From Chroococcidiopsis thermalis PCC 7203 (lineage in GTDB: Bacteria; Cyanobacteriota; Cyanobacteriia; Cyanobacteriales; Chroococcidiopsidaceae), in contig NC_019695.1 of the NCBI RefSeq assembly GCF_000317125.1, positions 1,724,336-1,788,335 on the forward strand: DNA of 64,000 bases, written 5' to 3'. Positions 20,513 to 56,380 of this stretch are shown here, one piece after another. Within the stretch, counting starts at the first letter, position 1. Each line of letters opens with the position of its first letter. The notes below the pieces were generated by a model, which was given only the letters and a program-made list of their open reading frames with translations, was not told the origin of the DNA and ran no database searches. The translations under genes were made by a program, and so were the position numbers.

Positions 20513-20571
20513 TGGGAGACAAGGGGAACAAAGGAGAGGGGGGGACAAGGGAGACAAGGGGGACAAGGAAG
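20513..20571. repeat. GGGAGACAAGG-type minisatellite
   Basis: Degenerate copies of GGGAGACAAG and GGGGACAAG lie between the nitrate-type ATPase fragment and the universal stress protein gene. They match the 9-mer array inside chlD. Confidence 0.85.
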
Positions 20572-20637
20572 AAGCTAAATCAATATACATTCTTCTATCT
20601 TCTGACTCCTGACTTCTGGCTCCTGACTTCTAATAAA

Positions 20638-25578: not shown

Positions 25579-27834
25579 ATGCCTGCGTCGTCTACTGCAA
25601 CCGTTACCAGTTTTCCCTTAACTGCTGTCGTGGGACAAGAAGCCATTAAAATAGCCCTGCTGCTAGCAGCCGTCGATCCTGGTTTGGGAGGAGTCGCGAT
25701 CGCAGGTCGTCGCGGTACGGCAAAATCAGTCATGGCGCGGGCAATTCATACCCTTTTACCGCCGATTGAAGTTGTTAAAGGTTCTTTTTGTAACTGCGAT
25801 CCCAATCGCCCTGAAGAATGGGACGACGAACTAAGTAGAGACGTTACATGTAACGTCTCTACAGAGGGTAACGTCTCTACAGAGGGTAACGTCCCTACAG
25901 AAGTGATTCCCGCACCATTCATACAAATTCCTTTAGGCGTGACAGAAGACCGACTTTTAGGTTCGGTGGATGTAGAACAATCGGTCAAACAGGGAGAAAC
26001 CGTATTTCAACCAGGACTGCTGGCACTTGCCCATCGTGGCGTGTTGTATGTCGATGAAATTAACTTACTCGACGACAGTATTAGCAACCAACTGCTGACG
26101 GTTTTAACCGAGGGACGCAACCAAATCGAACGGGAAGGAATTAGTTTTGGGCATCCCTGTCAGCCTTTATTTATCGCTACGTATAACCCAGAAGAAGGAG
26201 CGTTACGGGAACACCTGCTCGATCGCATCGCGATCGCTCTTTCTGCGGATGGCGTGCTAGGTCTAGACGAACGAGTACAAGCAGTAGAACAGGCGATCGC
26301 TTACACCACCTCACCGCAGCAGTTTCTCCAGCAATACGCCGAAGATCTCGACAATCTCAAAACTCAAATTATCTTGGCGCGAGAGTGGCTCAAAGACGTA
26401 CAAATTACCCACGAGCAAATTGCCTATTTAGTCGATGAAGCGGTACGCGCTAGAGTCCAGGGACACCGCGCCGAACTCTACGCCGTGCGAGTCGCCAAAG
26501 CCGCCGCCGCTTTAGAAGGCAGAACCACAGTTACAGCCGAAGATCTTCGTCGCGCCGTAGAATTAGTCATCGTCCCGAGAGCAACAGTCGTACAAACTCC
26601 ACCCGAAGCACCACCCCCACCACCTCCACCACCCCAAAACCAAGACGAACCCGAAGATGAGTCTAACCAGGAACAGGAGGAGCAGGAAGAGAAGGACGAA
26701 CAGGAAGAACCTGAAAACGAGCAAACACCGCCCAACATTCCTGAAGAATTTGTCTTTGATGCCGAAGGTGTAATTCTCGACGACAGCGTGCTTTATTTCG
26801 CACAGATGGCACAGCGGCGGGGGAAGTCCGGCAGTCGCAGTTTAATTTTCTCCGAAGATCGGGGACGATACGTCAAACCGATGTTACCCAAAGGTCCCGT
26901 GCGACGAATTGCAGTAGATGCCACGTTAAGAGCAGCTGCACCTTATCAGAAGGCACGGCGGGAGAGGCAGGGAGCAGGGAGCCTGGGAGTGCAGGGAGTA
27001 GAGACAAGGGAGACAAGGGAGACAAGGGAGACAAGGGAGACAAGGGAGACAAGGGAGACAAGGGAGACAAGGGAGACAAGGGAGACAAGGGAGACAAGGG
27101 AGACAAGGGAGACAAGGGAGACAAGGGAGCAACTACCAACTACCAATTACCCATTACCAATTACCAATTACCCACAAAAAAGAGTTTTTGTCGAGCAGGG
27201 AGATATCCGCTCGAAGCGACTCGTCCGCAAAGCGGGAGCATTGATCGTGTTTGTGGTTGATGCTTCTGGCTCGATGGCGTTGAATCGGATGCAATCAGCT
27301 AAGGGGGCAGTTTTTCAGCTCTTGACAGAAGCGTATGAAAATCGCGACCAAGTGGCGTTGATCCCGTTTCGTGGCGAACAGGCAGAGGTGTTGTTGCCTC
27401 CTACCCGTTCGATCGCTTTGGCGCGTAAACGATTGGAGTTGTTGCCTTGTGGTGGCGGTTCGCCCCTAGCGCATGGTTTAACACAAGCGGTACGGGTGGG
27501 TATGAATGCTCAAATGGCGGGAGATATCGGACAAGTGGTCGTTGTGGCAATTACCGACGGTCGAGGAAATATACCTTTGGCGCGATCGCTAGGCGAACCT
27601 TTACCAGAGGGAGAAAAGCCCGATATCAAGAAAGAACTACTGGAAATCGCCGCTAGAATTCGCGGATTGGGAATACAGCTGTTAGTCATCGATACTGAAA
27701 ATAAATTTATCTCTACAGGTTTTGCTAAAGAACTAGCTCAAACTGCGGGAGGAAAATACTACCACCTACCAAAAGCTACTGACTCCGCGATCGCTGGTGT
27801 TGCTAAAAGTGCAATTAATGCGATTAGGGGTTAG
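25579..27834 (+). CDS. chlD: Magnesium chelatase ATPase subunit D, with in-frame repeat insertions
   Basis: ChlD pairs with ChlI and ChlH to insert Mg2+ into protoporphyrin IX, the first committed step to chlorophyll. Order: a degenerate AAA+ domain ([50 protein letters not shown]), a Pro-rich then acidic linker (about residues 337-380), and a C-terminal integrin I/VWA domain with a MIDAS motif ([15 protein letters not shown]). At 751 residues it is longer than the usual 670-680. The excess is repeat DNA read in frame: about 22 residues after WDDELS (about 86-108), 14 ETR triplets (475-516), and a [14 protein letters not shown] stretch after them. No stop is introduced, and the flanking conserved blocks are intact, so a working enzyme is likely. 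Confidence 0.96.
25835..25903 (+). repeat. GTAGAGACGTTACA palindrome plus half-copies inside chlD
   Basis: The 28-base palindrome (GTAGAGACGTTACA and its inverse) is followed by two further half-units, each GAGGGTAACGTCTCTACA or a close variant. The stretch adds residues [20 protein letters not shown] to the AAA+ domain of ChlD without changing frame. Confidence 0.92.
27001..27126 (+). repeat. Minisatellite of 14 GAGACAAGG units inside chlD
   Basis: Fourteen perfect tandem copies of the 9-base unit GAGACAAGG encode (Glu-Thr-Arg)14 in the linker of ChlD. Because the unit is a multiple of three with no stop in this frame, copy number can change without breaking the gene. The same unit occurs in intergenic arrays at 6831, 20513, 27838, 48140, 54321, 56285 and 59170. 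Confidence 0.97.
27127..27178 (+). repeat. ACTACCAATTACC-type short repeats inside chlD
   Basis: Directly after the minisatellite, CAACTACCAACTACCAATT and related units are read as [15 protein letters not shown]. The same unit family fills gaps at 27930-27965, 36508-36545 and 37720-37760. Confidence 0.85.
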
Positions 27835-47817: not shown

Positions 47818-48320
47818 CCTAGCAGCCCCCTCTGCATAAATGCAGATATAAAATTGGTAAACTTTAACGATTGGCAGTTGGTGATGCTACGCAATTGAAC
47901 GCTGGAAATATCTGTATTCAATCTGTACTCAAAATGACAAAATAGCCGCCCGTTCTCCTCTTTCTTTAGACAGATTAGTCATAAGTGGTAATAGGCAATT
48001 GGTAATAGGTGGTTGACAGTAGAGAGTGACTAGTGGCTGGTGGCTAGTGGAACCAGCAGTAAATAGGGTGTGGGGTGTGGGGTGTGGGGTGTGGTGAGTA
48101 GTGCGCGATCGTTCTCCCCCAACTCCGCGACTCTCTCTTCTCCCCCTTGTCCCCCTTGTCCCCCTTGTCCCCCTTGTCCCCCTTGTCCCCCTTGTCTTCC
48201 TTGTCCCCCTTGTCTCCCTTGTCTCCCTTGTCCCCCTTGTCCCCCTTGTCCCCCCTTGTCTCCCCTGCTCCCTGCTCCCTGATAACTGTAAGCTAGTCAT
48301 AGCGATCGCGAGGATGAATT
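47818..48320. other. Repeat-filled gap upstream of formaldehyde dehydrogenase
   Basis: These 503 bases hold TTGGTAATAGG-type units (about 47995-48012), GGTGTGGGGTGTGGGG units (48068-48095) and a long C-rich 9-mer array (48140-48266). Short ORFs in this stretch translate the array and are not genes. Confidence 0.7.
48140..48266. repeat. CCCCCTTGT minisatellite (about 13 units)
   Basis: Around 13 tandem 9-base units of TCCCCCTTG with variants (TTCCTTGTC, TCTCCCTTG). It is the reverse-strand form of the GGGGACAAG unit. It lies 50-180 bases ahead of the formaldehyde dehydrogenase start. Confidence 0.95.
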
Positions 48321-54320: not shown

Positions 54321-54402
54321 ACTTCCTTGTCCCCCTTGTCTCCCTTGTCCCCCTTGTCTCCCCTGTCTCCCTTGTTCCCTTCCCTACTCCCTACTCCCTA
54401 GT
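54321..54402. repeat. CCCCTTGTC minisatellite upstream of sppA
   Basis: Five to seven 9-base units (CCCCCTTGT, TCTCCCTTG and variants) are followed by CCCTACTCCCTACTCCC. They sit just ahead of the sppA start at 54406. Confidence 0.9.
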
Positions 54403-56284: not shown

Positions 56285-56380
56285 TTCCCCCTTGTCCCCT
56301 TGTCCCCCTTGTCCCCCTTATCCCCCTTGTCCCCCTTGTCCCCCTTGTCCCCCTTGTCCCCCTTATCCCCCTTGTCCCGA
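56285..56380. repeat. CCCCCTTGT minisatellite (about 10 units)
   Basis: About ten CCCCCTTGTC / CCCCCTTATC units lie between sppA and the antiporter gene. It is the longest intergenic array after that at 48140. Confidence 0.95.

What the first reader, a model, noticed from the sequence alone, without database searches (positions are those of the whole stretch)
27001..27126. In-frame 9-bp minisatellite in an essential chlorophyll gene (chlD)
Fourteen exact GAGACAAGG units encode (Glu-Thr-Arg)14 in the ChlD linker. The same unit is otherwise an intergenic array in this genome. Because unit length is divisible by three, expansion and contraction keep the frame. It could act as a length-variable linker in a complex whose activity depends on linker flexibility, or be a tolerated passenger.
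Basis: seen in the sequence. Interest (0 to 1): 0.7.

Follow-up and report, generated by a model that had tools for sequence, protein, structure and literature searches.

The report
Translated repeat cassette inside ChlD
A block of 'junk-like' repeat DNA that is scattered all over this cyanobacterium's genome has landed, in frame, inside an essential chlorophyll gene at a spot that tolerates insertions, and the same has happened to about one in twenty of its longer genes, including DNA polymerase I and the mismatch-repair gene mutS.

Summary
In detail: fourteen exact GAGACAAGG units at 27001-27126 encode (ETR)14 inside a full-length ChlD (25579-27834). The context was misread. The nonamers are the core of a 207-bp composite cassette (26971-27177, 69 aa): G-rich heptads, nonamers, then ACCAATT-type heptads. 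It sits just before the VWA domain. Other genera of the family have 2 aa there. Two congeners carry inserts at the same site with other repeat content (42-43 aa), and distant cyanobacteria have repeat-like DNA there too.

The unit is not 'otherwise intergenic'. In 1.6 Mb sampled, 20 of 112 nonamer arrays lie inside genes, all with the same strand coding. 46 of 916 genes over 600 nt hold an embedded array, among them mutS, polA, queA and cobN. Open 7-bp families are in genes as often as the 9-bp family, so divisibility by three is not what matters. Families with stop codons are nearly absent. ChlD stays under strong purifying selection (dN/dS 0.008-0.03 downstream of the insert).

Best reading: a tolerated, in-frame passenger from a genome-wide repeat invasion, expanded by slippage at a permissive linker. 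There is no evidence of a tuned linker. Copy-number polymorphism is untested. It resembles protein-invading repeats of Rickettsia, but is built differently.

The parts
25579..27834 (+). chlD, magnesium chelatase subunit D, 751 aa, single copy
26971..27177 (+). whole inserted composite cassette, 69 aa (residues 465-533), replacing a 2-aa P-N/D/H/G found in other genera
   Evidence: alignment with 18 family genomes and 80 other cyanobacterial loci
26971..27000 (+). 5' part of the cassette: G-rich heptad-like DNA (GGGAGC type), encodes [10 protein letters not shown]
   Evidence: same 5' position of G-rich heptads next to nonamer arrays elsewhere
27001..27126 (+). 14 exact GAGACAAGG units, (ETR)14, residues 475-516
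27127..27177 (+). 3' part of the cassette: CAACTACC/CAATTACC heptads, encodes [17 protein letters not shown]
   Evidence: same 3' position elsewhere in the genome
25850..25901 (+). second in-frame repeat in the same gene: 2.9 copies of 18-bp [30 protein letters not shown] in the AAA+ domain; congener G009 has one unit fewer, G008 has none
27232..27831 (+). VWA (integrin I) domain downstream of the insert, dN/dS 0.008-0.03 among the three species

Best explanation
The array is one translated copy of a dispersed composite repeat cassette (5' G-rich heptads, then GACAAGG nonamers, then C-rich ACCAATT-type heptads) that has multiplied through this Chroococcidiopsis genome, in and between genes. 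In chlD repeat DNA entered, in the ancestor of the genus, a loop between the conserved '[10 protein letters not shown]' segment and the VWA domain. Its content has since been replaced in each species, and in this one the nonamers expanded to 14 identical units by slippage or recombination in 3-codon steps. Only copies that keep the frame, carry no stop codon and encode a hydrophilic flexible peptide in a permissive loop survive. The peptide is a tolerated passenger and ChlD remains a working essential protein. Shown: insertion, shared site, content turnover, genome-wide family, stop filter, purifying selection. Inferred: slippage, mobility, neutrality, disorder.
For: Empty site in the other six genera of the family, except one holding a different repeat. 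Inserts at the same site in both congeners, 42-43 aa against 69 aa, with no GAGACAAGG. 255 two-unit hits in the genome, 28 and 49 in the congeners, nearly none elsewhere in the family, 0 for the reversed control. 20 of 112 nonamer arrays lie inside genes with coding signal on both sides, and 46 of 916 genes over 600 nt hold some embedded array. Hosts include MutS, PolA, CobN, QueA and PBP1C. The MutS and QueA inserts are absent or short in other genera and differ in congeners. Cassette order is the same between and within genes: ACCAATT-type 3' of the nonamers 21:0 and 12:0, G-heptads 5' 13:0 and 6:0. Stop filter: families with stops on both strands or on the tested strand 0-4% in genes, stop-free ones 18-28%. 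dN/dS 0.008-0.03 in the VWA part.
Against: The strand bias in genes (20 of 20, binomial p = 2e-6) is not explained by stops in the nonamer itself, which is open in all six frames. Most cases (13 of 17) are explained by the ACCAATT flank, whose other strand has stops, but the 4 others also agree, so a protein-level or mechanistic preference is possible. ACTGATA and CAGTGAC heptads are open on one strand yet never seen in genes, so the stop filter is not the whole story. All three congeners keep an insert at the ChlD site, which could also mean that some insert is useful. Slippage and mobility were not observed.
Confidence: 0.8

Rival explanations
1. [quoted passage not shown]
For: The insert lies directly before the VWA domain, which mediates the main ChlD-ChlH contact in Synechocystis (PMC6604950). 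The unit is a multiple of three. All three species keep an insert there.
Against: Sequence and length of the insert are not conserved between congeners and most cyanobacteria have none. The same cassette sits in many unrelated genes. Open 7-bp families are as common in genes. The long acidic polyproline linker lies elsewhere (residues about 337-390), so reach is already provided.
Confidence: 0.08
2. Assembly or sequencing artefact: the array or its copy number is an error.
For: Perfect 126-bp repeats are prone to miscounting, and no reads were available.
Against: The frame is intact on both sides, the composite cassette and site are shared with two independently assembled congeners, and the same architecture recurs in dozens of genes. 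The exact number 14 stays unverified.
Confidence: 0.05
3. Nucleic-acid-level function: the repeat is kept for an RNA structure or a G-rich DNA structure, and the peptide is a by-product.
For: Strict strand polarity of the cassette and 20 of 20 coding-strand orientation in genes.
Against: The transcript of the region folds less well than all 200 shuffles (z = +2.96). Intergenic arrays show only a weak, non-significant orientation preference relative to tandem genes (24:12, p = 0.065). G-quadruplex formation was not tested.
Confidence: 0.06
4. The insert is removed before or after translation (bypassing, splicing or protein processing), so mature ChlD has normal length.
For: Nothing positive; no proteomic data were available.
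Against: No intein or intron signature; the contents differ between species and are plain tandem repeats; open frame throughout.
Confidence: 0.01

Closest known systems
Rickettsia palindromic elements (RPE) inserted in frame in protein genes (Ogata et al. 2000; described in PMC2229807 and PMC10969869)
   Same: Dispersed repeats found between genes and in frame inside unrelated conserved genes, translated, apparently tolerated; for Gmk, activity was retained with changed substrate affinity (PMC2229807).
   Different: RPEs are single ~100-150-bp palindromic elements with one conserved peptide frame. Here the inserts are tandem arrays of 7- and 9-bp units in an ordered composite, not palindromic, with a nonamer open in any frame, and variable in length.
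Cyanobacterial short tandemly repeated repetitive (STRR) heptamers, also found inside the RNase P RNA gene (Vioque 1997, seen here only as a title in a reference list)
   Same: Heptameric tandem repeats dispersed in a cyanobacterial genome that can enter functional genes.
   Different: Here the nonamer core, the fixed cassette order and the entry into protein genes in frame; the organism is not heterocyst-forming (own knowledge).
Correia elements, where the stop-free 107-bp form is found in genes and the stop-rich 155-bp form is not (PMC2229807)
   Same: The same stop-codon filter decides which repeat family is found inside genes.
   Different: MITE-type elements, not tandem arrays.
ChlD of other cyanobacteria with repeat-derived DNA at the same site (Hassallia, Tolypothrix, Scytonema; Gloeocapsa UFS-A4)
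   Same: Insert at the identical position; the motif is dispersed in the Hassallia, Tolypothrix and Gloeocapsa genomes.
   Different: Other repeat families (GGCAGGGAGCAGG-type heptads, CCCCCCTTAATAAGGGG palindromes).

Membership tests
Magnesium chelatase subunit D (ChlD) | Match above the curated cut-off of TIGR02031, with AAA+ and VWA domains | tested here: met
   784.5 bits vs 499.6; AAA and VWA domains
Magnesium chelatase subunit D (ChlD) | Under purifying selection on both sides of the insert | tested here: met
   dN/dS 0.03-0.06 upstream and 0.008-0.03 downstream
Protein-invading dispersed repeats (RPE-like behaviour) | Same repeat found between genes and in frame inside several unrelated conserved genes | tested here: met
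Protein-invading dispersed repeats (RPE-like behaviour) | Insert absent from orthologues of relatives | tested here: met
   ChlD, MutS, QueA
Rickettsia palindromic element proper | Palindromic element with terminal inverted repeats and a stable stem-loop | tested here: not met
   fold less stable than all 200 shuffles, z = +2.96; plain tandem units
Variable-number tandem repeat (VNTR) | Copy number varies between strains of one species | not testable with these tools
   only one genome per species held; between species the content differs and the 18-bp repeat differs by one unit
STRR-type heptamer repeats of cyanobacteria | 7-bp tandem units dispersed in the genome | tested here: met
   for the flanking parts only; hundreds of 7-bp arrays; the core unit is 9 bp
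Intein | Hint domain and conserved splice-junction residues | tested here: not met
   69-aa insert of tandem repeats, no such domain matched

The most novel reading that the evidence does not exclude
Chroococcidiopsis carries an undescribed class of ordered, polar, composite tandem-repeat cassette that actively spreads and enters protein genes in frame in one orientation, rebuilding about 5% of its longer proteins with hypervariable linkers. Some of these linkers, in ChlD or MutS, may have come to modulate protein function.
Probability: 0.15. Interest if true: 0.8.

Novelty: new variant of a known kind. Interest (0 to 1): 0.55.

Why it matters
In-frame invasion of conserved genes by dispersed repeats is known from Rickettsia, but here it is done by expandable tandem arrays, in a free-living phototroph, on a scale of roughly one in twenty longer genes, including mutS, polA and chlD. 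That gives a natural catalogue of sites in essential proteins that tolerate long disordered inserts, a test bed for how proteins gain linkers, and a caution for gene annotation and for mutagenesis or expression work with this strain.

Tried and rejected
RNA structure of the inserted region: rejected, folds worse than shuffles. AlphaFold of the full protein (mean pLDDT 58) and of residues 391-751: the insert is coil with pLDDT about 35 and lies outside the well-modelled VWA fold, but the conserved segment before it is also below 50, so disorder of the insert is suggested, not shown. Fold search of that model returned mainly VWA domains and added nothing. A second intact ChlD copy: none (the other ~42% match is ChlI-like). 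'Multiple of three favours genes': rejected. Intergenic array orientation relative to neighbouring tandem genes: weak, not significant. Literature searches for this phenomenon in Chroococcidiopsis or cyanobacterial proteins found nothing, but the library lacks most subscription papers.

Full report
OBSERVATION. The window holds fourteen exact GAGACAAGG units at 27001-27126. They are in frame in a 751-aa ORF, 25579-27834, and encode (ETR)14 at residues 475-516. The ORF is magnesium chelatase subunit D (TIGR02031, 784 bits, cut-off 500), with the AAA+ part matching solved ChlI structures and the VWA part matching 2x31. It is the only full ChlD in the genome. The genome is 6,689,401 bases in three contigs, chromosome 6,315,792, and its family members are Chroococcidiopsidaceae. 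From memory these sizes are those of Chroococcidiopsis thermalis PCC 7203 (taxonomy); the tool does not name the genome.

WHAT WAS INSERTED. The nonamers are only the core. Compared with other genera of the family, which read ...RRERQ-P-N-RKVIVEQ..., this ChlD has 69 residues (26971-27177) between RRERQ and KRVFVEQ. The DNA is a composite: G-rich heptad-like sequence, 14 nonamers, then CAACTACC/CAATTACC heptads. The two congeners held (G008, G009) also have inserts at exactly this position, 42 and 43 aa, but made of other repeat DNA (GGGAGCAGGGAGC..., CTAGCCACTAGCCAC, CCCGACACCCGACAC) and without any GAGACAAGG. So an insert predates the genus split and its content has turned over. Another genus of the family has a short palindromic repeat (CCCCCCTTAATAAGGGG) at this site, and distant Hassallia, Tolypothrix and Scytonema have GCAGGGAGCAGG-type DNA there. 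The heptad motif is dispersed in the Hassallia and Tolypothrix genomes (176 and 16 hits, reversed control 0; only 3 hits in the Scytonema genome) and the palindrome is dispersed in the Gloeocapsa genome (15 hits, control 4). The position is therefore a recurrent, permissive insertion site.

A SECOND INSERT IN THE SAME GENE. Window 25850-25901 holds 2.9 copies of an 18-bp repeat in the AAA+ domain. G000 reads [19 protein letters not shown]009 [12 protein letters not shown], and G008 has no such unit. This is an in-frame difference of one repeat unit between species.

GENOME-WIDE CONTEXT. Two-unit GAGACAAGG matches number 255 in this genome, 28 and 49 in the congeners, 3 in one other family member and 0 in the rest, with 0 for the reversed pattern. 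I took 1.6 Mb of the chromosome, called genes with a simple ORF and hexamer model, and required coding signal on both sides of an array. Of 112 nonamer arrays, 20 are inside genes. Over all repeat families, 46 of 916 genes longer than 600 nt hold an embedded array. In 0.4 Mb of G009 no nonamer array and only a few heptad arrays are inside genes, and in 0.4 Mb of G014, another genus, there are none. Hosts identified by curated models include MutS (1055 bits), DNA polymerase I (1050), CobN (1651, with about four separate repeat inserts), QueA, penicillin-binding protein 1C, a two-domain ABC ATPase, an RND adaptor and a glycogen debranching enzyme. In MutS the insert precedes the Walker A segment PDLIILTGPNASGKS; it is absent in some genera, short in others and different in each congener. 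QueA is similar.

HOW REPEATS GET FILTERED. The nonamer and the heptads GGGAGCA, CCGACTC and AATTCCG are free of stops on both strands. They are inside genes in 18, 20, 25 and 28% of cases. ACCAATT and AAAAGTC, with stops on one strand, are inside genes in 13 and 17%, always on the open strand (31 of 31, 12 of 12). CTAGYCA, with stops on both, is at 4%; ACTGATA (68 arrays) and CAGTGAC (48), with stops on one strand, are at zero, which the stop filter alone does not explain. So stop codons, not a unit length divisible by three, are the main thing that decides which repeats are found in genes. Insert length in a gene need only sum to a multiple of three. The nonamer does have one advantage, that single-unit slippage is harmless. 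This may explain why ChlD holds the longest perfect run of the sample (14, next 11), but it is an inference.

POLARITY. Around nonamer arrays the order is fixed: G-heptads 5' (13:0 between genes, 6:0 in genes) and ACCAATT-type heptads 3' (21:0 and 12:0); CTAGYCAC-type heptads occur 3' only between genes (12:0). The cassette therefore behaves as one ordered unit. In genes the nonamer strand with GACAAGG is always the coding strand (20 of 20). For 13 of 17 cases this follows from stops on the other strand of the ACCAATT part; the other 4 also agree. Whether hydrophobic translations of the other strand (PCL, LVS, LSP) are selected against, or the mechanism has a strand preference, is open.

IS THE GENE ALIVE? 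Among the three species, dN/dS is 0.03-0.06 upstream and 0.008-0.03 downstream of the insert. The VWA domain, which in Synechocystis makes most of the contact with ChlH (PMC6604950), has been kept intact with the insert in front of it. ChlD is read through the insert and functional, by inference from selection, not from an experiment.

MECHANISM. Most likely repeat DNA entered a loop that tolerates insertions, by an unknown route (replication slippage seeded by purine-rich codons such as CGGGAGAGGCAG, gene conversion between dispersed copies, or transposition). Its content was replaced, and nonamers expanded locally. The peptide is a hydrophilic, probably disordered passenger. Structure prediction places it outside the VWA fold as coil at pLDDT about 35, but the model is weak in the whole region. 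RNA structure is not the reason: the region folds worse than all shuffles.

COMPARISON. The closest known behaviour is that of Rickettsia palindromic elements, in frame in conserved genes. The defining palindrome was tested and is absent, so this is not an RPE; it works like one at the protein level. The building material resembles cyanobacterial STRR heptamers. I found no report of this phenomenon in cyanobacterial proteins in the library available.

LIMITS. Gene calls are home-made and cover a quarter of the chromosome. Only two congeners were available.

Noticed in passing
L204:15375-18050 (genome C1:1555375-1558053): mutS of this genome carries a repeat-derived insert directly before the ATPase P-loop segment, at a site that is hypervariable among relatives; possible effect on mismatch repair unknown.
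   Followed up: partly
L152:10358-14446 (genome C1:310358-314449): cobN, another metal-chelatase subunit, holds about four separate repeat-derived inserts, most shared with the congeners in altered form.
   Followed up: partly
L164:16069-19065 (genome C1:556066-559065): DNA polymerase I has [30 protein letters not shown] between its 5' nuclease and 3' exonuclease parts.
   Followed up: partly
window 20514-20572, 48137-48266, 54325-54379, 56286-56378: Other nonamer arrays of the window, the last three outside long ORFs, with mixed GAGACAAGG/GGGACAAGG units, unlike the homogeneous chlD array.
   Followed up: partly
G000 chromosome, sampled 1.6 Mb: Nonamer arrays inside genes always have the GACAAGG strand as coding strand (20 of 20), though both strands are free of stops; 4 of 4 cases without an adjacent ACCAATT array also agree.
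   Followed up: partly
G000 chromosome, sampled 1.6 Mb: Heptads ACTGATA and CAGTGAC are open on one strand yet none of 116 arrays lies inside a gene with coding signal on both sides.
   Followed up: no
genome C1:124822-126276, 1501235-1503811: Another dispersed repeat, GGGGAACTCGGGGACCCCACGACCGAAGGGAGTGGGGATTAGGGGGCGAA, follows several nonamer arrays both between and inside genes (peptide GGTRGPHDRREWGLGGEGGQG).
   Followed up: no
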